DNA of 64,000 nt from Microlunatus flavus (GTDB taxonomy: Bacteria; Actinomycetota; Actinomycetes; Propionibacteriales; Propionibacteriaceae), in NCBI RefSeq assembly GCF_900110855.1, contig NZ_FOFA01000001.1, positions 62,001 through 126,000 of the forward strand, in the 5' to 3' direction. This document shows, in pieces, positions 14,656-33,001 of the stretch. Each line of letters starts with the position of its first letter. Within the stretch, counting starts at the first letter, position 1. The notes beneath the pieces were generated by a model, which saw only the letters and a program-made list of their open reading frames with translations, had not been told where the DNA came from and made no database searches. The translations under genes and the position numbers were made by a program.

Positions 14656-14677
14656 GTTCACCTGTCGTTGCATAGCC
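14656..14677 (+). promoter_or_regulatory. Possible PHO-box unit before the exported phosphatase
   Basis: GTTCACCTGTC (14656-14666) is a perfect core unit; the next 11 nt (GTTGCATAGCC) keeps only the first GTT and overlaps a likely -10 CATAGC. It lies about 46 nt before the GTG/ATG of a phosphatase gene, where PhoP control would make sense. Confidence 0.4.
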
Positions 14678-14711
14678 GTTCGATGGACCTGGGGCCGTCC
14701 CGAGGGTGACG

Positions 14712-16742
14712 ATGCGGGACGTGAGTCTTCTGGAGCAGGGCGGTCAGCCCACCACCATCGACGAGTACACCGAGTGGAACGCGCGCGAGCTGGCGCGCGA
14801 GTCCGTGAGCAGGCGCAGCATCCTCAAGGCGGTGATGGCCGGCGCCGGCGGGTACGCCGCGGCGCAGTTCGGCCTGGCGAGCGCCGCCTTCGCCGCGGGC
14901 GGAGGCACGGCCGGCACCACGGGGACGGTGATCTCCGGTCGGCACCTGTCCTTCGTGCAGGGCCACGGCGGCCGTCCCGACAACGCCATGGCGGTCACCG
15001 CGCAGCTGGTGAGCAAGACGGGGACGCTGCCGTCCAAGCTGCGCTGCTTCGTCGACGTCGGCACCGAGCCCGGGCACTACGGCGAGCGGTACGAGGCCGA
15101 GATCGTCCACCTCGTGGGCCAGTACGCGATCCCCGGCGGGCCGGTCGGGAGCCAGTTCTACGCGAAGGCGCGCCTCGACCACCTGCGGGCCGACAAGGTC
15201 TACCACTACCGTCTCCGCCTCTCCGACGGCGCGACGAGCGGGACGGCGTTCTTCACCACGGCGCCGAAGCCGCCGAGCGGCCGACGGAACCACGCCAGCG
15301 AGGTGCCCGAGGAGTTCACGTTCACGGCGTTCGCCGACGTCGGCACCAACAGCGCCCCGACCGACCCGCGCCACGCCTGGGCCGACGACCCCAAGGTGGT
15401 CACCGACGCCGGCGGCACGTGGCCGACGGGCGTCTTCGACAACAACTACTACAAGCCGGACGACCCGGTCGCGGGCACGAGCGGCCGCGACCCGCACCCG
15501 GCCGCGACGCAGACCAACCTGATGGCCTCGCAGCGTCCGGTCTTCACCCTCCTGGCCGGGGACATCTGCTACGCCGACCCGGGTGGCAGCGGCCTCCCGG
15601 CCGACGACTCCCACACCCCGCTGGGGACGTCGGCGCCGGGCACGAACCTCTACAACCCCTACGTCTGGGACGTCTTCCTCAACCAGATCGAACCCCAGGC
15701 GGCCTTCGCCCCCTTCATGTTCGCCACCGGCAACCACGACATGGAGCCCCTGTACGGCAACACCGTGCAGCTCGGCGACAGCCCGACGCACGGCTACGGC
15801 GGCCACCTCGACCGGCTCGACCTGCCGACCAACGGACCCAAGGGCTGCCCGTCGGTCTACGCGTTCGTGTACGGCAACGTCGCGGTGATCTCGGTCGACG
15901 CCAACGAGCTGAGCAACGAGATCCAGACCAACAAGGGCTACTCCGACGGCGCGCAGCTGGCCTGGCTGGAGCGCACCCTCAAGCACTGGCGGACCGACGC
16001 CGACCAGGCGCACGAGATCGACTTCGTCGTCGCCTTCTTCCACCACTGCGCGTACTCGACGACCAACAACCACGCCTCCGACGGCGGCCTGCGCGACGCG
16101 CTCGACCCGCTGTTCAGCCGCTACGAGGTCGACCTGGTCGTGCAGGGCCACAACCACCTGCTCGAGCGCACCGACCCGATCCGGTACGGCAAGCGCACCC
16201 GCAGCGCACCCGACGGTTCCGTGCTGCACCCGCAGGTCGACGGCGTCACCTACATCTGCGTGGGCAGCGGCGGCCGCCCGCGCTACCCGTTCCGGCCGGC
16301 CCCGAGCGCGGACGCCCCGGCCCCGCAGGGCGTGACCCCAACGGGTGCGCAGCTGCTGCCGGAGGGCCAGCGCTACCGCGGCTACTCTCCCGCCGGCGGC
16401 GCGAACACGGCAGAGAACAACACCGAGAACGTCGTGAACAGCTACTACTGGTCGGCCGACGGCACCGCCAAGAACGACTCCGGCTACCTGCAGGGGACCA
16501 AGGTGCCCGAGGTCGTCGACTGGTCGCAGGTCCGCTACGACGCGTACGCCTTCCTCGCGATCGACGTGAAGCCGGCCAAGCAGGGCCACCACACGACGTT
16601 CACGATCCGCACGCTGGCCGACGCGCTGCCCGGGACGAACGAGGCGTACAGCGAGATCGACCGGATCACGTTGCGCCGGCGGGCGGGCGAGGGACGCATC
16701 CGGCGCCTCGACGCAGGACCGGCGGCCGACCCGACGCCGTAG
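14712..16742 (+). CDS. Tat-exported purple acid phosphatase-like metallophosphoesterase
   Basis: A large exported phosphoesterase of about 676 residues. A twin-arginine signal is evident: SRRSILK followed by a hydrophobic stretch and AAFA before the mature chain. The catalytic metallophosphoesterase motifs appear in order: ADVGTN, GDICYAD, GNHDM, a HHCAYS segment and QGHNH. The N-terminal part before them resembles the fibronectin-like domain of purple acid phosphatases. It should release phosphate from extracellular esters at a dinuclear metal site. ATG 14712 is chosen because GAGGG lies 5 nt upstream; GTG at 14706 is the alternative. A PHO-like unit upstream, and glpQ and pst nearby, support a role in phosphate scavenging. 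Confidence 0.87.
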   Translation: MRDVSLLEQGGQPTTIDEYTEWNARELARESVSRRSILKAVMAGAGGYAAAQFGLASAAFAAGGGTAGTTGTVISGRHLSFVQGHGGRPDNAMAVTAQLVSKTGTLPSKLRCFVDVGTEPGHYGERYEAEIVHLVGQYAIPGGPVGSQFYAKARLDHLRADKVYHYRLRLSDGATSGTAFFTTAPKPPSGRRNHASEVPEEFTFTAFADVGTNSAPTDPRHAWADDPKVVTDAGGTWPTGVFDNNYYKPDDPVAGTSGRDPHPAATQTNLMASQRPVFTLLAGDICYADPGGSGLPADDSHTPLGTSAPGTNLYNPYVWDVFLNQIEPQAAFAPFMFATGNHDMEPLYGNTVQLGDSPTHGYGGHLDRLDLPTNGPKGCPSVYAFVYGNVAVISVDANELSNEIQTNKGYSDGAQLAWLERTLKHWRTDADQAHEIDFVVAFFHHCAYSTTNNHASDGGLRDALDPLFSRYEVDLVVQGHNHLLERTDPIRYGKRTRSAPDGSVLHPQVDGVTYICVGSGGRPRYPFRPAPSADAPAPQGVTPTGAQLLPEGQRYRGYSPAGGANTAENNTENVVNSYYWSADGTAKNDSGYLQGTKVPEVVDWSQVRYDAYAFLAIDVKPAKQGHHTTFTIRTLADALPGTNEAYSEIDRITLRRRAGEGRIRRLDAGPAADPTP

Positions 16743-16786
16743 CGCGGGCCGGTACGCGCACCCGGCCGGCCCTCCGGGCCCTGACC

Positions 16787-17002
16787 TCAGACGGTCGGGG
16801 CCGGAGGGTCGGCCGGGCTCGTGCGGTGGTGGTCCTTGGGGGCCGCGTTCGGGTCGCCGCCCATCTGACCGAGGGCGGGCAGCTTGGCCGAGGCGCTGGC
16901 GCCACGCGCGGTGCTGCGCCGCCTCAGCACCGGGACCAGGATCGCCGCGGCGACCACCAGCACGACGACGACGACGATCAGGACGATGGTTCCGGTGCTC
17001 AT
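16787..17002 (-). CDS. Small single-pass membrane protein
   Basis: A 71-residue protein with one N-terminal membrane helix (STGTIVLIVVVVVLVVAAAILV) followed by RRR, which marks the cytoplasmic side, and a polar, Pro-rich tail (GGDPNAAPKDHHRTSPADPPAPTV). GAGGAGG lies just before the ATG, which supports this start over longer readings. No family was recognised. It is downstream of the unknown gene at 17085-17477 in the same direction, and converges on the phosphatase. Confidence 0.6.
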   Translation of the reverse strand: MSTGTIVLIVVVVVLVVAAAILVPVLRRRSTARGASASAKLPALGQMGGDPNAAPKDHHRTSPADPPAPTV

Positions 17003-17084
17003 GAGGCCTCCTCGGCCGGACCTGACGGTCCATGCCCCCAGAGTGCGCGCACCCACCTGACGGACACCCCGAGCGGGCAGCCGT

Positions 17085-17477
17085 TCAGTCGGTGACGACG
17101 AACGCCTGGTCGCGCACGGCGCGGGCGACCAGGCGGATGGACATGCGCTTGAAGGCGTCCTCGATGAAGGCGTCGACGCGGTCGGCGCTCACCGGGAACG
17201 AGGAGACCGGGATCTGCCCGGACTCCCAGCCCAGCCGCTCGATGTCGTCGATCGACACCAGCCCCGAGGTCTGGCGGTCGAACGCGTACACCGTCACCGC
17301 GGTGGACTCGTCGACGGCGATGTCGATGCCGAGGATCGTCCAGCGCTCGCGGTCCACGCCGGCCAGCTCGTAGAGGCTCGGCGAGCCGAGCGTCGCCACG
17401 GCGTCCTCGGCCGCGGCGGTCCCCACGTAGTCGCTCCAGCCGGCGCTCGCCGGGCCCAGCACCTGGTGCTCAGTCAC
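17085..17477 (-). CDS. Conserved-looking unknown protein, possible Pho-regulon member
   Basis: A 130-residue soluble protein of unknown function. No motif was recognised; the segments GSPSLYELAGVDRERWTILGIDI and AVTVYAFDRQ suggest an alpha/beta fold. The GTG at 17477 is chosen over a longer GTG at 17507 because a GAGCAT -10 box ends 6 nt upstream (leaderless pattern), and the longer version would begin inside the PHO-like repeat. The promoter has two PHO-like units in the same orientation as the gene. It lies between the exported phosphatase and glpQ, so a role in phosphate starvation is a reasonable guess. Confidence 0.65.
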   Translation of the reverse strand: MTEHQVLGPASAGWSDYVGTAAAEDAVATLGSPSLYELAGVDRERWTILGIDIAVDESTAVTVYAFDRQTSGLVSIDDIERLGWESGQIPVSSFPVSADRVDAFIEDAFKRMSIRLVARAVRDQAFVVTD

Positions 17478-17483
17478 GTCCGG

Positions 17484-17516
17484 ATGCTCGCAGGGCCAGG
17501 TGAACACGCGACGAAC
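17484..17516 (-). promoter_or_regulatory. PHO-like direct repeat plus -10 of the unknown gene
   Basis: On the minus strand, units GTTCGTCGCGT and GTTCACCTGGC (17516-17495; cores 5/7 and 7/7) sit where the -35 is expected, followed by GAGCAT at 17489-17484, 6 nt before the GTG at 17477. Confidence 0.45.
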
Positions 17517-17552
17517 GACAGGCGACGACCGGCGTCGGGCAGGGCGGCGGCG

Positions 17553-18548
17553 TCAGGCGACCAGCGCCGAGCGGGCGACGTCGCCGATGTCGGGGTTGTC
17601 GGTGAAGAAGTCGTCCATGCCCGCCCGCAGGAACGTCTCGATCTCGCCGAGCAGGTCGCCGGGTGCGTCCTCCGACCCGGCGCTGCGGTGCTGGAGCGGG
17701 AGGAAGCGGTTCTCGCGGCGGAACGTCCAGCCGGTCACGCGCAACCCGGCCGCGTGGGCGTCGTCCAGGACCGGGCCCGGCTCGAGCAGCCGCCCGTCGG
17801 CGTCGCGCGGGATCATCAGGTCCTTGTGGAGCGCCACCTGGTCGGCGTACTCCTTGATCCCGGCGAGGCCTTGCGGGGTGACGAGGTCGAGCGACGTGCG
17901 CGGGTCGCCCGTGCTGCGCAGGTCGTACGGGGCGCCCACGACGTGCAGGACCTGGATCAGCGGCAGCTCGGTGAGCCCGCGCAGCATCCGCAGGTTGCCG
18001 GTCTCGAAGCTCTGGATGACCACGGGGTCGTCGCGCCGGCTCCACCCGTGCGCGCCGAGCGCGTCGACCAGCGCCTCCTCCAGCGGCAGCCCGATCGAGC
18101 GGAAGTACGTCGGGTGCTTCGTCTCCGGAGCCACGCCGACCGGTCGGCCGTCGCGGGTGCGGGAGCGCCGGGCGAGGTCGAGGACCTCGTCGAGGGTGGC
18201 GACCGGTTGGCCGTCGAAGGCGACGTTCTGGGGCCGCAGCGCCGGCAGCGGCTCGCGGGCGGTCAGGGTGCGGATCTCGTCGAGGGTGAAGTCCTCGGTG
18301 AACCACCCGGTCAGCTCGCGCCCGTCGATCGTCTTCGTCGTGCGCCGGTCGGCGAACTCCGGGTGCTCCGAGACGTCGGTGCTGGCCGTGATCGCGCTCT
18401 CGTGGCGCACGACGAGGTGGCCGTCGCGGGTGGGGACGACGTCGGGCTCGATGACGTCGGCCCCCTGCTCGATCGCGAGCTCGTACGCCGCGATCGTGTG
18501 CTCCGGGCGGTAGCCGCTGGCGCCGCGGTGTCCGATGACGAGGTTCAC
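17553..18548 (-). CDS. glpQ: Glycerophosphodiester phosphodiesterase
   Basis: A 331-residue GDPD-family enzyme that hydrolyses glycerophosphodiesters to glycerol-3-phosphate and alcohol. The catalytic NLVIGHRGASGYRPEHTIAAY with active-site His-Arg (residues 6-8), ADVIEPDVVPTRDGHLVVRHE with metal-binding acids and general-acid His, and APETKHPTYF are all present, with a TIM-barrel length. The GTG at 18548 gives the canonical start; upstream in-frame codons add unconserved Pro/Arg-rich sequence. No signal peptide is visible from this start, so the site of action is probably the cytoplasm unless the start is further upstream. It is divergent from the polysialyltransferase-like gene across a region with a two-unit PHO-like repeat. 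GlpQ of other actinomycetes and bacilli is a classic Pho-regulon enzyme, used on phospholipid head groups or teichoic acid. Confidence 0.9.
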   Translation of the reverse strand: MNLVIGHRGASGYRPEHTIAAYELAIEQGADVIEPDVVPTRDGHLVVRHESAITASTDVSEHPEFADRRTTKTIDGRELTGWFTEDFTLDEIRTLTAREPLPALRPQNVAFDGQPVATLDEVLDLARRSRTRDGRPVGVAPETKHPTYFRSIGLPLEEALVDALGAHGWSRRDDPVVIQSFETGNLRMLRGLTELPLIQVLHVVGAPYDLRSTGDPRTSLDLVTPQGLAGIKEYADQVALHKDLMIPRDADGRLLEPGPVLDDAHAAGLRVTGWTFRRENRFLPLQHRSAGSEDAPGDLLGEIETFLRAGMDDFFTDNPDIGDVARSALVA

Positions 18549-18623
18549 GTCGCCATCCCAGCAGAACGGCCGCCGCCTCGTGGGTATTGGCGGTGGAACC
18601 CCGCGCGCCGCACGCCACCGGGA

Positions 18624-18645
18624 GTTCACCTGGTGTCCACCGGGC
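18624..18645 (+). promoter_or_regulatory. PHO-box-like repeat between glpQ and the glycan block
   Basis: Adjacent 11-nt units GTTCACCTGGT and GTCCACCGGGC (cores 7/7 and 6/7) lie in the 146-bp divergent intergenic region, oriented toward the gene at 18695 and 76 nt from the glpQ start on the other side. Confidence 0.55.
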
Positions 18646-18682
18646 GCTTCTGCCGCCGACACCTGCGGACGGGTTCGCACCC

Positions 18683-18688: not shown

Positions 18689-18694
18689 TCGGGC

Positions 18695-19873
18695 GTGAGC
18701 GCTCCCTGCTACCTGGTCGCCACCACGCCGCACGAGGTGCTCGTCATGGCCGCGGCGCTGCGCGGCGGCCACCTCGACGCCGCCGCGTCCTGCGTCCTCG
18801 TCCTCGGCACGGGCGACGCCTCGGACGCGGCTCGGCGGACCGCGGACCAGCTCGGCCTCGCCGAGCGGGTCGTCGCGCTCGACGACCTCGTCGCCACGTC
18901 CGGGCGCCTCGAGGAGGGTCCGGTCGAGCTGGTCGTCGGCACCGCGTCGGTCGAGGCGGGCCGCGCGCTGGCGCGGCGCCTCGTCGAGCTCAGCGTCACC
19001 CTCGTCGCGGTGGGCGCCGACGCGTACGGGCCGACGCCGGACGGCGTGCGGGGACGGTTCGCCCGCCTGACCCACCGCGTGCTGCACCTGGACCTGGTGC
19101 CCGGCGTGACCCCTCTGCTGCTGGCGGAGCGCCGGGTGCCCGCCGTGGCGGTCGCGCTCCCCGACCACCGCGCCGCGGCGTCCGCGCTGCCCGCCCCCGG
19201 CCCGGTGAGCAACCCCACGACCCTGGTGATCGGCCGCACGTCCGCCTGGGCGGACGCCCTCGACGCCGAGCGCCGCACCGCCCTGCTGGTGGCGATGGTG
19301 CAGCGCTGCGCCGAGGCGGGTCACTCGCGCATCGTCCTGCTCGCCGAGCCTGGCCTGCGGCCCCGGGCGCGCCGCGAGCTGGAGAAGGCGGCGAAGCAGG
19401 TGCGGGCCGACCTGACGGTCGTGGACGACCTCGGTCCCGTCGAGGCCTGGCTGGAGACCGGCGCGGTCCGCCTGGTCGTGGGGTCCGCTGCGCCGGAGCT
19501 GCTCGTGGCCCGCGACGTCTACGGCCTGCGCGTGGCCCAGCTCGACTCCGACGTCGTGCTCAAGCGGCTGGCGCCCTTCTCCCACCCCGGCCGGACGGCC
19601 GCGGCGCTGGTCGAGGCCACGGTGCCCGACCTGCGCAGCTGGACGCGCGCGCCCGAGGGCGAGCCCCCCGCCGCCGTCGACCTGGGGGCCACGATGACCG
19701 CCGTCGCGTACGCCATGGCGCCAGGACTGCTCGCCGAGCGTCGTGCCGACGTCATCGCGCACCTGGCCCGGACGCCGGACGACGTGCGCCGTCGCTTCGT
19801 GCGGCGGCGCCGGCTCGGCGAGCTCCGGCTGCCCGGCGGGAAGCGCAAGGTGAGGGCCGCGCTCGATGCGTGA
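18695..19873 (+). CDS. Polysialyltransferase-family glycosyltransferase (probable)
   Basis: A 392-residue soluble protein whose C-terminal half resembles the alpha-2,8-polysialyltransferase family: a segment VRLVVGSAAPELLVARDVYGLRVAQLDSDVVL followed by LAPFSHPGRTAAALVEATVPDL, where family members have a conserved position for the sugar nucleotide and an HP-containing motif. The N-terminal half begins YLVATTPHEVLVMAAALRGGHLDA, also typical of this group. In actinomycetes such proteins are associated with surface carbohydrate synthesis. No sialic acid genes are nearby, so the donor is unknown. It is the first gene of the glycan block and has a PHO-like repeat and a leaderless promoter upstream. 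Assignment is by pattern, and moderately sure. Confidence 0.55.
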   Translation: MSAPCYLVATTPHEVLVMAAALRGGHLDAAASCVLVLGTGDASDAARRTADQLGLAERVVALDDLVATSGRLEEGPVELVVGTASVEAGRALARRLVELSVTLVAVGADAYGPTPDGVRGRFARLTHRVLHLDLVPGVTPLLLAERRVPAVAVALPDHRAAASALPAPGPVSNPTTLVIGRTSAWADALDAERRTALLVAMVQRCAEAGHSRIVLLAEPGLRPRARRELEKAAKQVRADLTVVDDLGPVEAWLETGAVRLVVGSAAPELLVARDVYGLRVAQLDSDVVLKRLAPFSHPGRTAAALVEATVPDLRSWTRAPEGEPPAAVDLGATMTAVAYAMAPGLLAERRADVIAHLARTPDDVRRRFVRRRRLGELRLPGGKRKVRAALDA

Positions 19874-19935
19874 ACGTTCGGCGACGACTCCGGGAACGGG
19901 CCCGAGCCGCAGCAGGCTGCACGCCCAGGTCTTTG

Positions 19936-19941
19936 TAGCGT
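19936..19941 (+). promoter_or_regulatory. -10 box before the GT39-like gene
   Basis: TAGCGT ends 8 nt before the ATG at 19950, which supports that start and a leaderless transcript rather than read-through with a start at 19866. Confidence 0.45.
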
Positions 19942-19949
19942 CCGCGGAC

Positions 19950-21524
19950 ATGACCACGCTGCACGAGCCCGACGCCGCCCCGGTCGACGCCGCGACGCGC
20001 CCCGTCGAGCACCGGACCGGGCCGGCGCGGCTGCGCCGGGTCGACCCGGCGGTCGCCGCACCCGTCGTCGCCTCGGTCGTCGTCATGCTGGTGGTCGGCC
20101 TCTGGGGCCTCGACCGCGGGTCGATGTGGCTGGACGAGGCCGCGACGTACACGGTGGCGACGCGCCCGGTCCACCAGATCCTCGCCGTGCTGCAGAACAT
20201 CGACCTCGTCCACGGCGCGTACTACCTCTTCATGCACCTCTGGCTGCTGCCCGGCGGCGGGGAGGTCTGGATGCGGGTGCCCTCGGTGCTAGGGATGGCC
20301 GTCGGCGCCGGCGCGACGGCCGCGCTCGGCGTGCGCCTGGCCGGTCCTCGGACGGGGCTCGTGGCCGGGCTGCTCTTCGCCGGATGGCCCCTGGTGTCGT
20401 ACTACGGGCAGGAGGGGCGCTCCTTCGCCCTGGTCCTGGGCGCGGTCCTGCTCGCCACGTGGTGCCTGGTCCAGGCCCTCGCGTCGGGCCGGCGGCGCTG
20501 GTGGTGGGGCTGCACGGTCTGCCTCGTCACGGCGGCGACGCTGCACGAGTTCGCGGTGCTGGCGGTCGCCGCGCACGCGGTGACGCTGCTCCTGGCGCGG
20601 CCGGCCTGGCGGGTGTGGCGCGCCTGGCTGCTCTCCGCAGTGGTGTGCGGTCTCCTCGTCGCCCCGCTGGCCTGGCTCACCCAGCAGCAGGCGGGCCAGG
20701 TGAGCTACATGACCTCCCCCACCTGGAGCACGCTCACCGACCTGGCGGCGAAGTTCCTGTCGGTGAACCTGTGGCTCTCGCTGGTGCTGGTCGCCCTCGT
20801 CGCCGTCGGGACGGTGGCCGAGGTGCGGCGCCGGCCGCCCACGCCGCTCGGCCTCGCCGCCGTCGCGCTGCCGCTGCTGCTGGTGCCGGTCGGGCTCCTG
20901 CTGGCCGCGTCCCTGGTCCACCCCTTCTTCCAGGTCCGCTACGTCCTGTTCTCCGTCGCCGGGCTGCCGCTCCTCGCCGGGCGCGGGGTCGACCAGCTCG
21001 CGTCCACGGCAGCCCGCGTCACCCGCAGGACGGCCGTCGGCTGGGTCGTGGCCGTCGTGCTCGTCCTCGCCGTCTCCCTCGCGCAGCTGCCCGCGCTGCG
21101 CCACGAGCGGACCACCGGCTCCCGCTCCCAGGACTTCGCCGGCGCTGCGGCCGTCGTCGCGGCCGTGGCCCGGCCCGGCGACGGCGTGCTGTTCCTGCCC
21201 CTGAGCTACCGGCTCGGCGCCATGGCCTACCCCGACGCGTACGCGGGCGTCGACGACCTGGCCCTCAAGCGGTCAGCGGTGCAGGCCGCCAACCTGCGCG
21301 GCACGAACCGCACGCCGGACGCCATCCGCAAGGAGATGCTCACCCGCCAGCGCATCTGGGTCGTCAGCACCAAGAACCAGCGGGTGAAGGCCGGCGACGA
21401 GGTCGGGGCCGCGGAGATGGCCGTGCTGAAGGACCACTTCGCTGCCGAGCAGCTGTTCCCCGCCCCCGGAGCAGGGGTCCGCAGCCTCGAGGTGCACCTC
21501 TACGTCCGCACGGACGCGGGCTGA
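19950..21524 (+). CDS. GT39/ArnT-like polytopic glycosyltransferase
   Basis: A 524-residue integral membrane protein with around ten hydrophobic helices and the features of the GT-C superfamily (PMT/ArnT-like): a first helix followed by WGLDRGSMWLDEAATYTVATR, in which the acidic loop residues (LDEA) after the first helix are the typical catalytic site. It also has SYYGQEGRSFAL and a later FFQVRYVLFSVAGL segment. These enzymes use polyprenyl-phosphate sugars at the outer membrane face to glycosylate proteins or polymers. A soluble C-terminal part of about 130 residues follows. The ATG at 19950 is favoured by a -10 box; a longer form from 19866 would overlap the preceding gene. Substrate unknown; the context suggests a surface glycan. 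Confidence 0.75.
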   Translation: MTTLHEPDAAPVDAATRPVEHRTGPARLRRVDPAVAAPVVASVVVMLVVGLWGLDRGSMWLDEAATYTVATRPVHQILAVLQNIDLVHGAYYLFMHLWLLPGGGEVWMRVPSVLGMAVGAGATAALGVRLAGPRTGLVAGLLFAGWPLVSYYGQEGRSFALVLGAVLLATWCLVQALASGRRRWWWGCTVCLVTAATLHEFAVLAVAAHAVTLLLARPAWRVWRAWLLSAVVCGLLVAPLAWLTQQQAGQVSYMTSPTWSTLTDLAAKFLSVNLWLSLVLVALVAVGTVAEVRRRPPTPLGLAAVALPLLLVPVGLLLAASLVHPFFQVRYVLFSVAGLPLLAGRGVDQLASTAARVTRRTAVGWVVAVVLVLAVSLAQLPALRHERTTGSRSQDFAGAAAVVAAVARPGDGVLFLPLSYRLGAMAYPDAYAGVDDLALKRSAVQAANLRGTNRTPDAIRKEMLTRQRIWVVSTKNQRVKAGDEVGAAEMAVLKDHFAAEQLFPAPGAGVRSLEVHLYVRTDAG

Positions 21525-22607: not shown

Positions 22608-22629
22608 GGCTGCTGAACGGTCGGTGAAC
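22608..22629 (-). promoter_or_regulatory. PHO-box-like repeat before a glycosyltransferase
   Basis: On the minus strand, units GTTCACCGACC and GTTCAGCAGCC (cores 7/7 and 6/7) are adjacent with the exact 11-nt period, 51-72 nt upstream of the GT2 start at 22557. Confidence 0.5.
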
Positions 22630-22700: not shown

Positions 22701-22706
22701 TACGGT
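22701..22706 (+). promoter_or_regulatory. -10 box of leaderless GT2 gene
   Basis: TACGGT ends 7 nt before the GTG at 22714. A GTG at 22705 lies inside this box and is therefore less likely to be the start. Confidence 0.45.
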
Positions 22707-22713
22707 GCGGCGC

Positions 22714-24942: not shown

Positions 24943-24956
24943 ACGAGGAGGGTTCC

Positions 24957-26234
24957 GTGACGCCCGAGCCCACGCCGTCGCCGGAGAGCACGTCGACCGC
25001 CCCCGGCAGGCTGTTCACCGTCGGCATCCCGGTCTACAACGGCCGCGGCCTGCTGCGGGCCTGCCTCGCCTCCGTGGTGCGCGCGGACTTCCCGCACGAG
25101 CGCTACGAGGTCGTCCTCGCCGACGACGGGAGCACCGAGCCCGAGACGCTCGCGATCCTGCGCGAGCTCGAGGCCGCGCACGCCGACGAGCCGGGCTTCG
25201 TCCGGGTGCTCCGGCTGCCCGAGAACTCCGGCGGCGCCGCGCGGCCGCGCAACCTGATTCTCGACGAAGCCGTCGGGGAGTACGTGTTCTTCGTCGACGC
25301 CGACGACACCGTCGGCAGCGAGTCGCTGCGGCGCATCGCCGACGCGCTCGCCGAGACCCCCGACGAGCCGCCGGTCGACTGGATCGCCCTGCACCAGGCC
25401 CTGGTGAACGGCCGGCAGGGCGCCGCCCGGGTCAAGCAGGCCCGTCTCGACGTCCCCCGCATGAAGGCCTTCTCCACGCTCACCGTGCACAAGGTGTTCC
25501 GGCGCGCCGAGATCGAGCGCCAGCGGCTGCGGTTCGACGACCGGCTGCCGTCCGGGCAGGACGTGACCTTCGCCTTCTCCTACATCCTGGGCGCCAGCCG
25601 CTTCCTGATGCTCGGCGGCTACGACTACTACTACCTGACGCGCCACGCCGGGAACCCGGAGGAGCCGCCGCACCTGTCGCGCACCGCGAACACGGCCAAG
25701 CGGCTCATCGACAAGAACCACCGCATCCTCACCTCGATGCTGGCCGACCTCAACCGCAGCGAGCTGCCGATGGCCGAACGCCTGGACGTCCTCGGCAACG
25801 TCGCCCTGCCGCGGGTCCTGGTGCAGCAGCGCTACCTCACCTCGATCGTCAGCGAGGGGCCCCGGGCCGGCGCCCGCGAGCTGCTGCGGCTCTCGGCCCT
25901 GCTCGACGACCCGCTCGCCGTACGGCTCGACCCGGCGCGGCTGCAGAAGGCCTTCACCGCCGAGCAGCTCGCGGTCGTCCGCGCGGCGGACTGGCCGGCG
26001 CTGGCCGAGCTGCTGGCCGAGCCCGGCGACACCGCGAAGGCGCCCCCGAGCCGTACGGAGCGCTGGGTGCGGCTCGGGCGGCGTGTCTCCGACGCCGCCA
26101 CGGGACGCGGGCGGCACCGCCGCGTGCTCCACGAGCTGACCGGCCTGCGCACGGCCGTGCGCGACCTGCAGAAGGCGCAGGCCCGCCTCGAGGCCGAGGT
26201 GCGCGAGGCCCTGGGTCGCGGCCCGACCGGCTGA
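24957..26234 (+). CDS. Family 2 glycosyltransferase coupled to glf
   Basis: A 425-residue GT2 enzyme: LFTVGIPVYNGRGLLRACLASV, VVLADDGSTEPE, ENSGGAARPRNLILDEAVGEYVFFVDADDTV (metal-binding DADD) and RLPSGQDVTFAFSYI. A helical region follows, ending in a predicted coiled segment (LHELTGLRTAVRDLQKAQARLEAEV), which may mediate assembly with other transferases. GTG 24957 is chosen for its GAGGAGGG ribosome-binding site; the alternative ATG at 24939 overlaps the glf stop. Because it is directly coupled to glf, a galactofuranosyltransferase role is plausible but unproven. Confidence 0.82.
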   Translation: MTPEPTPSPESTSTAPGRLFTVGIPVYNGRGLLRACLASVVRADFPHERYEVVLADDGSTEPETLAILRELEAAHADEPGFVRVLRLPENSGGAARPRNLILDEAVGEYVFFVDADDTVGSESLRRIADALAETPDEPPVDWIALHQALVNGRQGAARVKQARLDVPRMKAFSTLTVHKVFRRAEIERQRLRFDDRLPSGQDVTFAFSYILGASRFLMLGGYDYYYLTRHAGNPEEPPHLSRTANTAKRLIDKNHRILTSMLADLNRSELPMAERLDVLGNVALPRVLVQQRYLTSIVSEGPRAGARELLRLSALLDDPLAVRLDPARLQKAFTAEQLAVVRAADWPALAELLAEPGDTAKAPPSRTERWVRLGRRVSDAATGRGRHRRVLHELTGLRTAVRDLQKAQARLEAEVREALGRGPTG

Positions 26235-26256
26235 CCGGCCCGGGGCGCCGCCCCGG

Positions 26257-27549
26257 TCAGGAGGGCCGAGAGCCCTCGCCCAGCTGCGCCTCGAGCTCGG
26301 CCAGCCGCCCGTCGATGCCGGTCAGGTGGTCCTCCAGCCCGTCGAGGCGCTGCTGGATGACGACCAGGCCGAACATGAGGTCCTGCCGGGTCGGCTCGTG
26401 GTGCCGGACCCGGGAGGCCAGCGTGGCGACGCGGTGCAGCCGCCGCCCGCGCAGGACGTTGCGGACGTAGCGCCCCGTGAGGACGGCGGTGTGGGTGACG
26501 CCCGAGTGCTTGAGGTGGAACGTGGCCGTCACCAGTGGGTTGTCGGAGGCGGGCCGGTTCGACAGCCGGCGCACGAAGCTGCCGAACTCGCGCTTCGCGA
26601 CCGCCGCGCTCATCCGCTGCGTCGTCGCGCCCTTGTTGCCCTCGCGCAGGGCGGCGGCGAGCGTCGTCGGCGGGTACTGCCCGACGATCGGCACCAGCGT
26701 GTCGAAGAGGCGGCGCTGCAGCGCCGGCGGCGTGCGCTTGGAGATCCACTCCATCTGCGAGACCACCCAGCCCAGCAGCGTGGTGTCGTAGACGTCGAGC
26801 AGTCCGCGGGCCTCGAGCCAGGCGTGGATCGTGTCGTGGTGGGCGAAGATCTGGAACAGCCGCTCGTCGGCGGCGGCCATGGTCTGGCCGCTGCGGCCGA
26901 CCCGGTGGTAGCAGAGCACCTCGGGCACCACGGCGACGGAACGCGCGGCCAGCAGCGTGAACCAGTGGAACGGGTTGTCCTCGTAGAAGCCCTCGCTCAC
27001 CGGGAAGCGGATCCGCTGCTCCTCCAGGACGCTGCGCCGGTAGAGCTTGCGCCACGGCACCGCGATGAAGCGCAGGAAGCGCTTGCGCGTCTCGACGTCC
27101 AGCACGTACGCCGGCTGCGTCAGCGCGCCCCAGCGGTGCGCGTCGGCAGGGTCGTGGCGCTCGCCGGTGCCGTCGACCACCTCGGCGTACTCGCACATCG
27201 CCAGGTCGGCGTCGTGGGCGACGGCCGCGCCGACCAGGCGCTCGAACATCGTCGGTTCGACGAAGTCGTCGCCGTCGACGAAGCCCAGCCAGCGCCCGGT
27301 GGCGCGGTCGAGCCCGGCGTTCGCGGCCGTCGCCACCCCGCCCGGGCTGTTCGTCGGCAGCAGCACCGGGACGAAGCGCGGGTCGCGCGCGCAGAACGCG
27401 GTGATCACGGCCGGCGTCGAGTCGCTCGAGCCGTCGTCGACGACCAGCACCTCGAGGTCGGTGAGGGTCTGCGCGGCGACGCTCTCCAGGCACTGCTCGA
27501 CGTAGGCCTCGATGTTGTACGTCGTCACGACGATGCTCAGCTCGGGCAC
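26257..27549 (-). CDS. Family 2 glycosyltransferase
   Basis: A 430-residue GT2 enzyme: ELSIVVTTYNIEAYVEQCLESV, VLVVDDGSSDST, NAGLDRATGRWLGFVDGDDFVEP (metal-binding DGDD) and KLYRRSVLEEQ / FPVSEGFYEDNPFHWF in the acceptor part. The C-terminal end has heptad-like sequence (QQRLDGLEDHLTGIDGRLAELEAQLGEG), as does the GT2 at 24957. GTG 27549 is preferred for a GGAAGGGG site 6 nt upstream; GTG 27585 overlaps the stop of the upstream gene as GTGA. It forms an operon with the GT2 gene at 27582-28544. Confidence 0.82.
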   Translation of the reverse strand: MPELSIVVTTYNIEAYVEQCLESVAAQTLTDLEVLVVDDGSSDSTPAVITAFCARDPRFVPVLLPTNSPGGVATAANAGLDRATGRWLGFVDGDDFVEPTMFERLVGAAVAHDADLAMCEYAEVVDGTGERHDPADAHRWGALTQPAYVLDVETRKRFLRFIAVPWRKLYRRSVLEEQRIRFPVSEGFYEDNPFHWFTLLAARSVAVVPEVLCYHRVGRSGQTMAAADERLFQIFAHHDTIHAWLEARGLLDVYDTTLLGWVVSQMEWISKRTPPALQRRLFDTLVPIVGQYPPTTLAAALREGNKGATTQRMSAAVAKREFGSFVRRLSNRPASDNPLVTATFHLKHSGVTHTAVLTGRYVRNVLRGRRLHRVATLASRVRHHEPTRQDLMFGLVVIQQRLDGLEDHLTGIDGRLAELEAQLGEGSRPS

Positions 27550-27581
27550 GGGGCGCCCCTTCCGCTCGTGGTCCGCGACGC

Positions 27582-28544
27582 TCACGCGAGCGCCCGCCGG
27601 ACCAGGCGGGTCGCGAGCTCGGTGTCGTGCCGCAGCCGGATCCGGGTCAGGTCGCCCAGGTCGATGCGCAGCAGGTGCTCCTGCAGGCGCAACGAGAACT
27701 CGTCGGCCACGTCCGGGGTCACGCGGCTGGTCGCCCAGCCGCCGACCCGCAGCACGAAGTCCCAGTAGTGGTGGGCGTAGCGGGCCCGCTTCTCGGGACG
27801 CCGCTCCAACGCGGTGTAGGTCTCGTCGAGGGCGTCGAACAGGCTCAGCCGCGCCCGGCTCTCGCGGTTGGTGAGGTTGCGGGCGCCGACGTTGACGATG
27901 TGGGTGCACAGCGGCTGGTCGAGCAGCAGCACCGTCTCCGCGTCGAGCAGGGTCAGCCAGTGCCCGAGGATGTCGTTGTGCACGACGGTGCCGCTGAACC
28001 GCAGCCCCGTACGCCGGTAGTGGTCGGTGCGGACCACCTTGTTCCAGGGGTAGTTCGAGCACCCGAGCAGCGAGGGCACCTCGCCCAGCCGGGTGAGGCG
28101 GCGCGGACCGGTCGCGTAGCGGGTCCACACGGCGGCGTCGAAGGAGTTCATGCCCTCCGCGCCGCCTCCCCCGCGCCGGTAGCGGTACGGCAGCACCGCC
28201 ACGTCGGCCCCGGTGTCCTCCAGCCCGCGGACCGCCGCCACCAGGCTGTCGGGGTGGAGCTCGTCGTCGGCGTCGAAGAAGAGCGCGTAGCGGCCGGTGG
28301 CGCGCTCGAAGCCGCGGTTGCGGGCGACGCCCGCGCCGGCGTTGGTGCTGAACCGTTCGACGACGACCTCGGCACGGCCCAGCGCCTCGACCTGCGCGAC
28401 GGAGTCGTCGGTCGACGCGTCGTCGACGACGACCACCTCGACGTCCAGGGCGTCGATGGTCAGGGCCGAGCGCACCAGGCCGCCGACCGTGCCGCCGGCG
28501 TTGTGCACGGGGATGATCACGGACACGTCGGGACGCACCGTCAT
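27582..28544 (-). CDS. Family 2 glycosyltransferase
   Basis: A 320-residue GT2 enzyme: VSVIIPVHNAGGTVGGLVRSAL, VVVVDDASTDDS, NAGAGVARNRGFERATGRYALFFDADDELHP (metal-binding DADD), then YPWNKVVRTDHYRRTGLRFSGTVVHND, which is the conserved start of the acceptor region. GGAGGACC precedes the ATG at 28544. It is the first gene of a two-gene minus-strand operon and is divergent from pstS across a 279-bp region holding the pst PHO box. The sugar and acceptor are unknown. Confidence 0.83.
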   Translation of the reverse strand: MTVRPDVSVIIPVHNAGGTVGGLVRSALTIDALDVEVVVVDDASTDDSVAQVEALGRAEVVVERFSTNAGAGVARNRGFERATGRYALFFDADDELHPDSLVAAVRGLEDTGADVAVLPYRYRRGGGGAEGMNSFDAAVWTRYATGPRRLTRLGEVPSLLGCSNYPWNKVVRTDHYRRTGLRFSGTVVHNDILGHWLTLLDAETVLLLDQPLCTHIVNVGARNLTNRESRARLSLFDALDETYTALERRPEKRARYAHHYWDFVLRVGGWATSRVTPDVADEFSLRLQEHLLRIDLGDLTRIRLRHDTELATRLVRRALA

Positions 28545-28681: not shown

Positions 28682-28736
28682 GTTCACCTCGCGTTCACCT
28701 GACGGGGGCCAACCGGACAACTGGCGTGCGTAGTTT
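28682..28736 (+). promoter_or_regulatory. PHO box and promoter region of pstS
   Basis: Two perfect-core 11-nt direct repeats, GTTCACCTCGC (28682-28692) and GTTCACCTGAC (28693-28703), are the best PHO box in the window. A TAGTTT -10 candidate is at 28731-28736. The leader of about 80 nt contains a small CCGGC/GCCGG hairpin before the AAGGA ribosome-binding site of pstS. The region also separates pstS from the divergent glycosyltransferase operon. Confidence 0.8.
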
Positions 28737-28823: not shown

Positions 28824-29972
28824 ATGATCAGCTCCCGCCGCGTGCGGAACACCACGTTCGCCGCCCTCGCCGCGATGGCCTCCCTGAGCCTCGTGGCCTG
28901 CGGCTCCGACCCGGGTGGCACCACCGCAGCCCCGGGTTCGTCGGGCTCCGGCTCGACCAGCGCCAACGCCTCCGGCCTCACCTGCCCCTCGGGCAAGCTG
29001 AACGCCGAGGGTTCGACGGCCCAGGCCAACGCCATCACCGAGGTCATCGCCGACTACCAGTCGGCCTGCAACAACGCCTCCACCATCGAGTACAACCCGA
29101 CCGGCTCCGGCGCGGGCATCAAGTCGTTCTACAACAACCTGGTCGACCTGGCCGGCTCGGACTCCGCGCTGAAGACCGTCGCGGTCGACGGCGTCGTCGA
29201 GGCGGACAAGGCCAAGGAGCGGTGCGGCGGCAACCCGGCCTGGAACATCCCGATGGTCGTCGGCCCGATCGCCTTCGCCTACAACGTCGACGGCGTCGAC
29301 AAGCTCGTGCTGAACGCCGAGGTGCTGGCCAAGATCTTCAACGGCACCATCAAGACCTGGAACGACCCGGCCATCGCCAAGCTCAACTCCGGCGTCACCC
29401 TGCCGGGCGACCCGATCACCGTGTTCTTCCGCTCCGACGAGTCGGGCACCACGGAGAACGCCACCAAGTTCCTCGCCGCGGCCGGCAACGGCGCGTGGAC
29501 CAAGGAGCCCGCCAAGGCGTGGAGCGGCACGGGCGAGGGCAAGAACAAGTCCTCCGGCGTGGCCGAGGCCGTCAGCAGCACCAAGAACTCCATCTCCTAC
29601 ATGGAGTGGAGCTACGCCCGCGACAACAAGCTCGCGATCGCCCAGCTCGACAGCGGCAGCGGCGCGACCGAGCTGACGGGTGACTCCGTCGGCAAAGCCG
29701 TCTCCGAGGCTACCGTCGCGGGCACCGGCAACGACCTGGCGCTCAAGCTCAACTACCAGCCCAAGGACGCCGGCGCCTACCCGGCGCTGCTGACGACGTA
29801 CGAGATCGTCTGCAGCAAGGGCCTCGACGCCGACAAGACCGCCCTGGTCAAGGACTTCCTGACCTTCTTCTCCTCGCCCGAGGAGCAGCAGTCCCTGCAG
29901 GACCTCGGCTACGCACCGCTGCCGACCGACCTGCAGACCAAGGTCAAGACCGCGGTCGCCGCGATCTCCTGA
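28824..29972 (+). CDS. pstS: Phosphate-binding lipoprotein of the Pst transporter
   Basis: A 382-residue periplasmic-type phosphate-binding protein, lipid-anchored on the outer face of the membrane. The signal peptide ends at the lipobox LVAC (Cys26) followed by a Gly/Ser/Thr linker. LNAEGSTAQANAITE, PTGSGAGIKSF, DLAGSDSAL and FRSDESGTTENATKFL contain the Ser/Thr/Arg/Asp residues that bind phosphate in PstS. It is the first gene of pstSCAB, preceded by the PHO box. A strong hairpin between pstS and pstC probably lowers expression of the downstream membrane genes. Confidence 0.97.
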   Translation: MISSRRVRNTTFAALAAMASLSLVACGSDPGGTTAAPGSSGSGSTSANASGLTCPSGKLNAEGSTAQANAITEVIADYQSACNNASTIEYNPTGSGAGIKSFYNNLVDLAGSDSALKTVAVDGVVEADKAKERCGGNPAWNIPMVVGPIAFAYNVDGVDKLVLNAEVLAKIFNGTIKTWNDPAIAKLNSGVTLPGDPITVFFRSDESGTTENATKFLAAAGNGAWTKEPAKAWSGTGEGKNKSSGVAEAVSSTKNSISYMEWSYARDNKLAIAQLDSGSGATELTGDSVGKAVSEATVAGTGNDLALKLNYQPKDAGAYPALLTTYEIVCSKGLDADKTALVKDFLTFFSSPEEQQSLQDLGYAPLPTDLQTKVKTAVAAIS

Positions 29973-29980
29973 ACCCCCGT

Positions 29981-30033
29981 CGCCGGTGCCGCCCGGCCGC
30001 GCCCTTCCGGGCGTGCGCCGGACGGCACCGGCG
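29981..30033 (+). terminator. Intercistronic hairpin between pstS and pstC
   Basis: An 11-bp perfect stem (29981-29991 with 30023-30033) encloses a GC-rich loop that can itself pair. It lies 9 nt past the pstS stop and 52 nt before pstC. Such structures commonly act as partial terminators or 3' stabilisers so that PstS is made in excess. Confidence 0.6.
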
Positions 30034-30084
30034 TCCTAGCGTGAGGCCCGTGCACTGCGTGAAGCGAAGGAGGAGGGCGGAGGC

Positions 30085-31296
30085 GTGACCGACACGACCC
30101 GCAAGCCCGGCCAGGACGGCAGCACCGGCATCTCGACGGTCGCCGACCCCCTGGGGCATGCCGACGTCGACGCGGACCGCCGCGACCAGACGTTCGACGA
30201 GACCCCCCGAGAGCTCCTCGAGGCCGGGCCCGCCGCGGCCGACCCGAGCATCTCGCCCGTGCACGACGAGGTGGCCCGGCACAGCCCGGTCCCCGTCGTC
30301 GAGCACCACGCGCGTCCCAGCCGGAGCGCCGACCCCGACCACGCGGTCGCCTCGACCGGTTCCGGCGTCAAGCTCGCGTCGATCAGCCGCACCGGAGACC
30401 TGCTCTTCGGCGGGCTGACCAAGGGCACCGCGATCGTCCTGGTGCTGCTGGTGGCCTTCGTGGGCATCTTCCTGCTCGTGCTCGCCCTGCCGAGCATCCT
30501 GGCCGACCAGGACAACTTCCTGACCAGCCGGAACTGGCAGGTGTCGGGCGGCGACCTGCGCTTCGGCATCCTCGGGCTGCTGTGGACCACGGTGCTCTCC
30601 TCCGTGGTCGCGCTCGTCATCGCCGTGCCCGTCGCGGTCGGGGTCGCGCTGAGCCTGACCCAGTACCTGCCCAAGCGGGTCGCGGGCCCGGTGGGCTTCC
30701 TCGTCGAGCTGCTCGCCGCGGTGCCCTCGATCATCTTCGGCCTGTGGGGCCTGATCGTCTTCGGGCCCTTCCTGGGTCCGATCGGCACCTGGATCGGCGA
30801 CGTCCTGGGCTTCATCCCGCTCTTCGCCCTGGTCTCGGACCCGAAGAGCACGGTCTTCGTCGCCGGCATCGTCCTGGCGATCATGATCCTTCCGATCATC
30901 ACGTCGATCTCGAAGAACGTGTTCGAGCAGACCCCCCGCGACCAGATCGAGGCCGCGCTCGCGCTCGGCGCCACGCGGTGGGAGGTCATCCGGACCTCGG
31001 TGCTGCCCTACGGCCGCTCCGGCGTCATCAGCGCCTCGATGCTCGGCCTGGGCCGCGCGCTCGGCGAGACCATCGCCGTGCTGATCATCCTCAGCCAGCC
31101 TGCGCCCGGCAGCCCGTTCACGCCGTCGATCTTCGCCGGCGGCGAGACCTTCGCCAGCAAGATCGCCAACAACGCGTCCGAGTTCGACACGCCGTCCAAG
31201 ACCGGCGCCTACATCGCGGCCGGCCTGGTGCTCTTCGTGGTCACCTTCGTGGTGAACGCGGCAGCCCGGGTCGTCGCCGACCGAGGGGTGAAGTGA
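30085..31296 (+). CDS. pstC: Phosphate ABC transporter permease PstC with N-terminal extension
   Basis: A 403-residue permease with six membrane helices from about residue 113 on, the ABC permease EAA-loop region ([23 protein letters not shown]) and the PstC-typical [21 protein letters not shown]. Usual PstC proteins have 300-340 residues; here about 107 hydrophilic residues precede the first helix, rich in Asp, Pro, Ala and His. The GTG at 30085 has a strong GGAGG site upstream, and no later ATG lies in the extension, so it is probably translated. Its role is unknown. It pairs with PstA to form the channel and is coupled to pstA (TGATG). Confidence 0.94.
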
Positions 31297-32219
31297 TGGC
31301 CACCGCCACCGCGCCGAACGACCTCCAGGGCGGCGACGCCCCGCTGTCCTTCCGCAAGCCCAGCGGCTCGCGCACCGTCAAGAACGCGCTGGCCACGGTC
31401 TACGTGACCGTGGCGACGGTCCTGGCCCTCATCCCCCTGGTCTGGGTGCTGTGGACCGTCGTCAGCAAGGGCATCGGGCTCGTGCTCACCTCGACCTGGT
31501 GGCTGCAGAGCCAGCGCGGGATCACCCCGCGGCGCGAGGGCGGCGGCGCCTACCACGCCATCGTGGGCACGCTCGAGATCGGGCTCGTCTGCGCCCTGAT
31601 CGCGGTGCCCCTCGGCGTCCTCGGCGCCATCTTCCTCGTCGAGTACGCCCGCGGGACCAAGGCGTCGAGGGTCGTCAGCTTCACCGTCGACATCCTCAGC
31701 GGCATCCCGTCGATCGTCGCGGCGCTGTTCGTCTACGCGCTCGTCATCACGATCCTCGGCTTCGGCCGCTCCGCGATCGCGGTGTCGCTCGCGCTGGTGC
31801 TGCTGATGCTGCCCGTCGTGCTGCGCTCCACGGAGGAGATGCTCAAGCTGGTGCCGGACTCGCTGCGCGAGGCCTCGTACGCGCTCGGCGTGCCGAAGTG
31901 GAAGACGATCCTCTTCGTCGTCATCCCCACCGCGTTCGGCGGCATCTCCACCGGCGTCATGCTCGGCCTGGCCCGCGTCATGGGCGAGACCGCTCCCCTG
32001 CTGATCCTCGTGTCGTACGCGGTGGGCATCAACTTCAGCCCGACCAGCTCGACCATGGCCTCGTTGCCCACCATGATCAACTCGAGCCGCGACGTGGCCC
32101 CCGGGCTGCCCGGCTACGACCGCACGTGGGCCGCGGCGCTCACCCTGATCATCATCGTCATGCTGCTCAACCTCGTCGCGCGGGGCATCGCCCGCGCGAC
32201 GAAGCTCAAGGAGAAGTGA
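31296..32219 (+). CDS. pstA: Phosphate ABC transporter permease PstA
   Basis: A 307-residue permease with six membrane helices. [21 protein letters not shown] and the EAA-loop [29 protein letters not shown] are characteristic of PstA. The ATG at 31296 overlaps the pstC stop by one base, so translation is coupled. It forms the heterodimeric membrane channel with PstC. Five bases separate its stop from the pstB start. Confidence 0.95.
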
Positions 32220-32224
32220 GAACC

Positions 32225-33001
32225 GTGGCCAAGCGCATCGACGCGAAGAACGTCGACATCTACTACGGCGCCTTCCACGCCGTCCAGGACGTGTCGCTCA
32301 CGGTCGAGCCCCGCACCGTCACCGCCTTCATCGGCCCGTCCGGCTGCGGCAAGTCGACCTTCCTGCGCACGCTCAACCGCATGCACGAGGTCATCCCGGG
32401 CGCCTACGTCAAGGGCAGCGTCACCCTCGACGGCACCGACCTCTACGCCCAGGGCGTCGACCCGGTGGCCGTGCGGCGGATGGTCGGCATGGTCTTCCAG
32501 CGGCCCAACCCCTTCCCCTCGATGTCGATCTTCGACAACGTGGCGTCCGGGCTGCGGCTCAACGGCGTGAAGAACAAGGGCGTGCTGAGCGACGCCGTCG
32601 AGCGCTCGCTCAAGGCCGCGAACCTGTGGAACGAGGTCAAGGACCGCCTCGGCCGCGCCGGCATGGGGCTGTCCGGCGGTCAGCAGCAGCGCCTCTGCAT
32701 CGCCCGCGCGATCGCGGTCGAGCCCCAGGTGCTGCTGATGGACGAGCCCTGCTCGGCGCTCGACCCGATCTCGACGCTGGCGATCGAGGACCTGATCAAC
32801 GAGCTCAAGGAGCAGTTCACGGTCGTCATCGTCACGCACAACATGCAGCAGGCCGCGCGCGTCAGCGACCGGACCGCGTTCTTCAACCTCGCCGCGCAGG
32901 GCAAGCCGGGCCGCCTCATCGAGGTCGGGCCGACCGACACGATCTTCTCCAACCCGACGGAGAAGGCGACCGAGGACTACATCACCGGCCGCTTCGGCTG
33001 A
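32225..33001 (+). CDS. pstB: Phosphate ABC transporter ATP-binding protein PstB
   Basis: A 258-residue ABC ATPase. Walker [11 protein letters not shown]-loop [17 protein letters not shown] (typical of PstB), signature LSGGQQQR, Walker B VLLMDEP and H-loop VTHN are all present. The GTG at 32225 gives the canonical [12 protein letters not shown] N-terminus. It is the last gene of the pst operon here; phoU is not downstream, where a gene for a DUF2510 membrane protein with its own promoter follows instead. Confidence 0.97.

What the first reader, a model, noticed from the sequence alone, without database searches (positions are those of the whole stretch)
14656..33001. Candidate Pho-controlled island linking phosphate scavenging, uptake and a galactofuranose glycan
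Seen: PHO-box-like 11-nt direct repeats (core GTTCACC) in intergenic DNA at 18624-18645, 22608-22629 (minus) and 28682-28703, a weaker pair at 17495-17516 (minus), and a single unit at 14656. They flank an exported phosphatase, an unknown gene, glpQ, a polysialyltransferase-family gene, a GT2 gene and pstSCAB. glf and several glycosyltransferases lie between. Known: PhoP of actinomycetes binds such repeats, pstS and glpQ are classic targets, and Bacillus replaces teichoic acid by phosphate-free teichuronic acid under phosphate limitation using Pho control. Inference: this locus may be an actinomycete counterpart in which a phosphate-free galactofuranose polymer is made while GlpQ and the phosphatase recover phosphate. 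I know of no described system of this layout, but could not search.
Basis: partly seen in the sequence, partly recalled or inferred. Interest (0 to 1): 0.8.

Follow-up and report, generated by a model that had tools for sequence, protein, structure and literature searches.

The report
Phosphate-controlled sugar-polymer island beside pst
In one group of soil bacteria (Microlunatus), a block of sugar-polymer genes sits inside the phosphate-uptake gene cluster under the same kind of phosphate-starvation switches, perhaps standing in for a different starvation polymer that their relatives make.

Summary
The repeats are real. A matrix trained on pstS boxes of 15 congeners without the island ranks 28682, 6365, 18624, 17495 and 22608 as the window's five best sites (shuffles average 0.055 such sites). 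The island lies between mutT1 and pstS, which are adjacent in 9 of 16 non-island congeners. Three genomes carry it, and all keep boxes before unk140, pstL, gtA and pstS.

What changes: the 'polysialyltransferase' keeps the fold and is under purifying selection, but none of 40 distinct island-type sequences keeps the catalytic Asp or the HP His, against 13 of 13 relatives. The genome shows no NeuB or CMP-sugar synthetase, so a sialic/Kdn polymer is unlikely. GlpQ shows no signal peptide by eye. Best reading: a Pho-controlled, probably Galf-containing envelope glycan in the niche of a teichulosonic-type polymer. Expression and glycan chemistry are untested.

The parts
6365..6386 (+).
   Evidence: matrix score 24.0; positional counterparts in G114 (21.3), G074 (only 9.9) and G148
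14656..14688 (+). weak PHO-like element, three GTT units at 11-nt spacing, upstream of the phosphatase
   Evidence: score 5.9; units recur in G074
14706..16742 (+). metallophosphatase of purple-acid-phosphatase type, probably exported (Tat motif SRRSILK by eye); in G000 and G074, not found in G114
   Evidence: PF00149 9e-11; N-terminus
17085..17477 (-). unk140: conserved 130-aa protein of unknown function, Pho-boxed
   Evidence: no Pfam; 93 hits with itself; beside a GDPD gene with a PHO box in G018 and G088
17495..17516 (-). PHO box for unk140
   Evidence: score 20.1; 22.7 in G074, 19.4 in G114
17553..18548 (-). GlpQ-type GDPD, no signal peptide visible
   Evidence: PF03009 2.5e-37 (longer ORF); N-terminus
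18624..18645 (+). PHO box of the glpQ/pstL divergent promoter
   Evidence: score 20.5; counterparts 15.6 and 14.9
18695..19873 (+). pstL: polysialyltransferase-fold protein lacking the catalytic Asp and HP His
19866..21524 (+). PMT_2/GT-C glycosyltransferase; start uncertain (19866 overlaps pstL, my caller prefers 19950); in G000 and G074, not in G114
   Evidence: PF13231 2e-7; below the NF052499 cut-off
21574..22557 (-). gtA: GT2 glycosyltransferase facing its own PHO box; weak GlfT1-like hit
   Evidence: PF00535; NF050113 23.2 bits against cut-off 330
22608..22629 (-). PHO box of the gtA/gtB divergent promoter
   Evidence: score 16.9; 20.9 in G074, 13.2 in G114
22705..23679 (+). gtB: GT2
   Evidence: PF00535 5.7e-18
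23800..24942 (+). glf: UDP-galactopyranose mutase, the only PF03275 match in the genome
   Evidence: PF03275 4.7e-70
24939..26234 (+). gtC: GT2 overlapping glf; best solved relative 5tze/5tz8 (recalled: S. aureus TarS)
26257..27585 (-). gtD: GT2
   Evidence: PF00535 2.7e-33
27582..28544 (-). gtE: GT2, divergent from pstS
   Evidence: PF00535 9.3e-29
28682..28703 (+). PHO box of the gtE/pstS divergent promoter
   Evidence: 0 mismatches to the core, score 24.5; 28.2 in G074, 29.0 in G114
28824..33001 (+). pstS, pstC, pstA, pstB
   Evidence: Pfam
9306..12454 (+). ppk and mutT1 (NUDIX/histidine phosphatase): left border of the insertion point
   Evidence: Pfam; synteny

Best explanation
A PhoP-controlled envelope-glycan island, inserted between mutT1 and pstS in one Microlunatus sub-clade. 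Shown: PHO boxes of canonical quality in the promoter regions of unk140, glpQ/pstL, gtA/gtB and gtE/pstS, kept in three genomes. Inferred: when phosphate falls, phosphorylated PhoP binds them and co-induces Pst uptake, a secreted phosphatase, GlpQ, and the glycan genes (pstL, gtA, gtB-glf-gtC, gtE-gtD; pmt where present). Glf supplies UDP-galactofuranose and the GT2 enzymes assemble a glycan without polyol phosphate, saving phosphate. It occupies the niche that an intact, PHO-boxed polysialyltransferase-NeuB cluster (teichulosonic-acid type) has in some congeners. The pstL product descends from a polysialyltransferase that lost sialyl transfer and was kept for another role, either as a non-catalytic partner or as a transferase with another donor.
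For: Matrix and shuffles; own-genome check: close matches before phoU/phoRP, phoA, PHO4 and an SBP gene; boxes kept inside less conserved intergenic DNA; insertion between mutT1 and pstS; unk140 is Pho-boxed beside another GDPD gene in G018 and G088, away from any island; glf single-copy; TagF-type genes present; no NeuB and no CMP-sugar synthetase match; NeuB in 14 of 14 other carriers of a polyST-like gene and 0 of 3 island genomes; motif loss in 40 distinct sequences against 13 intact relatives; purifying selection on pstL; in G125, a congener without NeuB or island, a different glf locus has a strong box (20.9) before a 1496-codon ORF with a GT2-like stretch; S. coelicolor precedent.
Against: No expression, binding or glycan data. 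Box matches do not prove regulation: the review passage notes confirmed boxes without phosphate response, and in this genome two-mismatch sites also stand before genes with no phosphate link. gtB-glf-gtC and gtE-gtD have no box in their own orientation, only a shared divergent one; in G074 an opposite-strand methyltransferase gene separates pmt from pstL. No polymerase or exporter of the island's own is recognised. GT2 specificities are unknown; gtA is far below the GlfT1 cut-off. Five of 12 other genus genomes also lack NeuB without an island-type pstL, so 'replacement' is not forced. Of four other glf loci in the genus, only G125 shows a strong intergenic box; G041, G107 and G151 do not. In G114 one site unrelated to the island (10277, 16.2) outscores the pstL and gtA boxes. 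No strong intergenic box lies near the four TagF-type genes, so repression of teichoic acid by PhoP is not supported. The matrix was trained on sites picked with the same core consensus.
Confidence: 0.6

Rival explanations
1. The boxes serve only phosphate genes (pst, glpQ, unk140, phosphatase); the glycan genes are neighbours without phosphate control.
For: Clustering near pst may be a chance insertion; gtB, glf, gtC, gtD and gtE have no own-strand box; G041 holds a glf module without a strong intergenic box.
Against: Boxes face pstL and gtA from about 50 nt, with no phosphate gene next on that strand, and are kept in three genomes.
Confidence: 0.12
2. Decoration rather than replacement: the GT2 enzymes put Galf or other sugars on an existing teichoic acid under phosphate limitation.
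For: gtC and gtD match solved GT2 chains 5tze/5tz8 and 6h1j (recalled as TarS and TarP, which glycosylate wall teichoic acid); TagF-type genes exist in the genome.
Against: These matches cover the general GT2 domain; sugar-coating a phosphate polymer saves no phosphate; five GT2 genes suggest a longer chain.
Confidence: 0.15
3. The product is a phosphate-free glycolipid replacing phospholipids; cytoplasmic GlpQ recycles glycerophosphodiesters from lipid turnover.
For: GlpQ shows no signal peptide (by eye); lipid replacement under phosphate limitation is described for Streptomyces ornithine lipids (passage).
Against: Five GT2 genes, a GT-C enzyme and a polysialyltransferase-fold protein are more than a glycolipid should need; no lipid-headgroup family was hit among the island proteins. 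One literature search for this idea returned no paper.
Confidence: 0.1
4. The repeats are chance matches in GC-rich DNA.
For: Outside the window, 18 of 30 two-mismatch genome hits lie inside genes.
Against: Shuffles, matrix, conservation and the own-genome check.
Confidence: 0.03

Closest known systems
Streptomyces coelicolor SCO4873-4882 teichulosonic-acid cluster (PhoP-activated)
   Same: Genes of a phosphate-free wall polymer under PhoP together with pst and scavenging genes (passages). The polyST-NeuB clusters of congeners resemble it (homology to SCO4873-4882 not tested).
   Different: Here there is no NeuB, no CMP-sugar synthetase, a polyST-type protein without catalytic motifs, glf plus five GT2 genes, and linkage inside the pst locus.
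Bacillus subtilis teichuronic-acid (tua) operon under PhoP-PhoR
   Same: Idea of swapping a phosphate-rich for a phosphate-free wall polymer (review passage).
   Different: No UDP-sugar dehydrogenase family among the island proteins; different enzymes.
[quoted passage not shown]
   Same: pst-nudix-ppk linkage (PMC7866108 passages); here ppk-mutT1-pst.
   Different: Glycan and scavenging genes are inserted between mutT1 and pst.
Mannheimia polysialyltransferase 5wc6/5wcn (GT38 type; name and family partly recalled)
   Different: 10% identity; catalytic acid and HP His absent.

Membership tests
Actinobacterial Pho regulon (PHO-box genes) | two 11-nt direct repeat units with GTTCACC core upstream of genes | tested here: met
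   core as given in the passage
Actinobacterial Pho regulon (PHO-box genes) | phoR-phoP-phoU present in the genome | tested here: met
   PhoU by Pfam; regulator and kinase read by eye from ORFs at L031:689-2610, not run against a family library
Actinobacterial Pho regulon (PHO-box genes) | PhoP binding and induction by low phosphate | not testable with these tools
   no expression or binding data
Teichulosonic-acid / sialic-type polymer cluster | NeuB-family synthase | tested here: not met
   control rings in 9 of 14 genomes
Teichulosonic-acid / sialic-type polymer cluster | CMP-sugar synthetase (PF02348) | tested here: not met
   control rings in 11 of 14 genomes
Polysialyltransferase (GT38 type) | GT-B polysialyltransferase fold | tested here: met
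   (predicted model; other GT-B families follow within about 1.5 Z)
Polysialyltransferase (GT38 type) | D/E-D/E-G acid and HP motif, needed for NmB-polyST activity | tested here: not met
   0 of 40 distinct island-type sequences keep the acid (one gapped) or the His (another gapped); 13 of 13 relatives keep both
Mycobacterial-type galactan (glf-glfT1-glfT2; recalled) | UDP-galactopyranose mutase | tested here: met
   PF03275 4.7e-70
Mycobacterial-type galactan (glf-glfT1-glfT2; recalled) | GlfT1 at the equivalog cut-off | tested here: not met
   gtA 23.2 bits against 330; not listed for the other island proteins scanned
Teichuronic-acid tua operon | UDP-glucose dehydrogenase (TuaD type; recalled) | tested here: not met
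   no such family among island proteins; rest of the genome not searched

The most novel reading that the evidence does not exclude
A starvation polymer was swapped: in this sub-clade the Pho-controlled Kdn/sialic (teichulosonic) wall polymer was lost and replaced by a galactofuranose polymer wired into the pst locus, while the old polymerase lost its catalytic and donor motifs and was retained as a conserved non-catalytic component of the new pathway.
Probability: 0.25. Interest if true: 0.75.

Novelty: new variant of a known kind. Interest (0 to 1): 0.55.

Why it matters
If true, it shows that the phosphate-sparing wall switch is a conserved strategy with exchangeable chemistry: the regulator and niche stay while the polymer changes. 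It also gives a testable case of a polysialyltransferase-fold protein under purifying selection without sialyl-transfer motifs, and warns that 'polysialyltransferase family' labels in actinobacteria need not mean sialic acid.

Tried and rejected
Chance matches: rejected. Sialic/Kdn polymer: rejected. Decaying pseudogene for pstL: rejected; dN/dS 0.32 against G074, with eight neighbours at 0.16-0.38, and no stop inside in three genomes. Rfam (gathering threshold) and tRNA features: none in the window. unk140 function: AF2 model only pLDDT 67.4, no PDB match at E <= 0.001; left open. The search for related loci in genome contigs confirmed no locus. An order-level search at E <= 1e-40 found island-type pstL in 3 of 293 genomes, one genus. 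Repression of teichoic-acid genes by PhoP: no strong intergenic box in stretches around four TagF-type genes (one stretch is cut by a contig end); for three weaker Glyphos_transf matches only short loci were scanned.

Limits of counts: PWM training used 15 of 16 non-island congeners (G107 dropped, best site above 2 mismatches; the G144 pstS start was set by hand). Of 14 genomes with a distant polyST-like gene, 13 were aligned; G002 was not, nor were second copies. The 42 island-type rows are 40 distinct sequences (G074 = P0003, G114 = P0027), defined by about 50% identity or more to the window protein, not by proven island context; P0041 (Asp and HP kept) and P0042 (both lost) were left out of both groups. 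Six of the 42 rows keep the Ser of the FST stretch and 18 the Pro of HP. Of 16 non-island congeners, 9 show mutT1 next to pstS; G135 and G144 contigs are too short, G125 is unclear in my gene calls, G120 has other genes between, and G107, G098 and G130 do not have ppk/mutT1 next to pstS. My gene caller was trained on the window and works poorly on some relatives (G151, G019, G041).
Full report
WHERE IT IS. The window is 64 kb of contig C16 of a 4,788,555-base genome, G+C 73.5%. Relatives place it near Microlunatus, Propionibacteriaceae. A taxonomic paper lists Friedmanniella (now Microlunatus) flava with 73.5% G+C and 4.79 Mbp (PMC6113628, passages), so M. flavus is likely; this is inference.

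THE BOXES. The consensus pair with up to three mismatches occurs 14 times in the window against 4.57 expected. Genome-wide, 10 sites have at most one mismatch. Four lie in this window (pstS, 6365, 18624, 22612). Of the other six, three are intergenic, before phoU, phoA (PF00245) and a PHO4 transporter; one overlaps a gene end before an SBP_bac_6 gene; one more overlaps a gene end; one is inside a gene. Of 30 two-mismatch sites outside the window, 18 are inside genes, 3 overlap gene ends and 9 are intergenic; two of the nine are further units at the phoU and phoA sites, and at least four stand before genes with no evident phosphate link. To avoid using the island as its own evidence, I built a matrix from pstS boxes of 15 congeners that lack it; the window's five best sites are 28682, 6365, 18624, 17495 and 22608, and shuffles give 0.055 such sites on average. 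The core consensus was used to pick the training sites, so the motif itself is not independent; the positions are.

CONSERVATION. In G074 the four best sites are the counterparts of pstS, unk140, gtA and pstL. In G114 the counterparts score 29.0, 19.4, 13.2 and 14.9; one unrelated site at 10277 scores 16.2 there. My gene caller places the G114 unk140 box inside the end of glpQ. The alignments show the repeat units largely kept while much of the spacer changed. In G074 and G114 a weaker opposite-strand site faces the glpQ side of the pstL promoter (11.3 and 11.7). The glnR-side box has positional counterparts in G074 (weak), G114 and G148, in line with the PhoP-glnR cross-talk reviewed in PMC4415409 (passages).

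ARCHITECTURE. The island's units start from five promoter regions: S51/phosphatase (weak box), unk140, glpQ/pstL, gtA/gtB and gtE/pstS. Its other six gaps, convergent or within apparent operons, have none. glf-gtC and gtE-gtD overlap; pmt overlaps pstL only if its upstream ATG is used, and in G074 an opposite-strand methyltransferase gene lies between them. In the window each glycan gene is thus within reach of a boxed promoter, but gtB-glf-gtC and gtE-gtD only through a divergent one.

INSERTION. In 9 of 16 congeners without the island, mutT1 is followed directly by pstS; in the window genome, G074 and G114 the island lies between. The core common to all three is S51, unk140, glpQ, pstL, gtA, gtB, glf, gtC, gtD, gtE. 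The phosphatase and pmt were not found in G114. G074 carries extra genes, among them a phytase-GDPD fusion and a BenE/short-chain-dehydrogenase/HTH block. Homologues of pstL with gtC and/or unk140 recur on further contigs of identical length (737237, 454765, 233462, 311131 and 25387 bases), which suggests but does not prove linkage there. Parts exist elsewhere: unk140 beside a large ORF with a GDPD match and a PHO box (18.7) in G018 and G088; a gtD-glf-gtB module in G041 without a strong intergenic box.

OTHER glf LOCI. Seven of 20 genus genomes have glf. Outside the island genomes: G125 has a more distant glf (46%) with a strong intergenic box (20.9) between it and a 1496-codon ORF with a GT2-like stretch; G107 has a similar locus (and a gtC-like gene, 49%) without a strong box; in G151 the best site is 15.1 and my gene calls fail; G041 as above. 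G125 has neither NeuB nor an island-type pstL. This one case fits a wider Pho-Galf link; the others do not show it.

THE POLYMER IT MAY STAND IN FOR. In all four same-genus polyST clusters examined (G018, G059, G140, G130) a PHO box of 17.5-21.5 lies in the gap beside NeuB, and one of 18.7 lies at a GT2-polyST pair in G005 (another genus). In the remaining eight family members no site of 17.5 or more was found at the cluster; G014 has 17.1 and G019 16.5 several kb away, and G015 is cut by a contig end. This resembles S. coelicolor SCO4873-4882, a PhoP-activated, phosphate-free polymer cluster (PMC13011467, PMC2824715, PMC2267785, passages). Against a simple swap: five other genus members lack NeuB without having an island-type pstL.

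CHEMISTRY. glf is the only UDP-galactopyranose mutase found in this genome, so Galf should depend on the island. The five GT2 enzymes cannot be assigned a linkage: gtA hits GlfT1 far below cut-off, and gtC is nearest to 5tze/5tz8 (recalled as TarS). The genome has four near-full-length TagF-type genes, so a phosphate-rich polymer is possible, but none has a strong intergenic box nearby. GlpQ shows no signal peptide by eye, so it more likely recycles imported or lipid-derived diesters than attacks the wall (inference).

LITERATURE. Nine searches of the open-access library listed no paper that, by title and abstract opening, describes such an island; subscription papers are mostly not held.

VERDICT. 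Pho control of at least pstL and gtA is likely (about 0.85, inference from sequence). A Galf-containing phosphate-sparing envelope glycan is the best guess (about 0.6 overall). It is a new variant of a known kind.

Noticed in passing
window 6365-6386: Second-best PHO box of the window, between a rhodanese gene and a small ORF, about 400 nt upstream of glnR; positional counterparts in G074 (weak), G114 and G148.
   Followed up: partly
window 17085-17477 (-); L140; L141: unk140, a conserved unknown protein with a strong PHO box, elsewhere beside a large GDPD-containing gene with a PHO box between them.
   Followed up: partly
L147:9486-9518 (G125): Strong PHO-box-like tandem between a distant glf and a 1496-codon GT2-like ORF in a congener without NeuB or island.
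   Followed up: partly
L139 (G041:C1:2508000-2527900): gtD-glf-gtB module away from pst, without a strong intergenic PHO box.
   Followed up: partly
L085:16095-16991 (G114): Gene of 298 residues without Pfam hit between glpQ and pstL in G114.
   Followed up: no
window 35376-36407 (-): IS481-type transposase gene downstream of the pst operon.
   Followed up: no
G000:C3:3435 (L032): PHO-box-like site before a solute-binding protein gene (SBP_bac_6), a candidate further Pho target.
   Followed up: no
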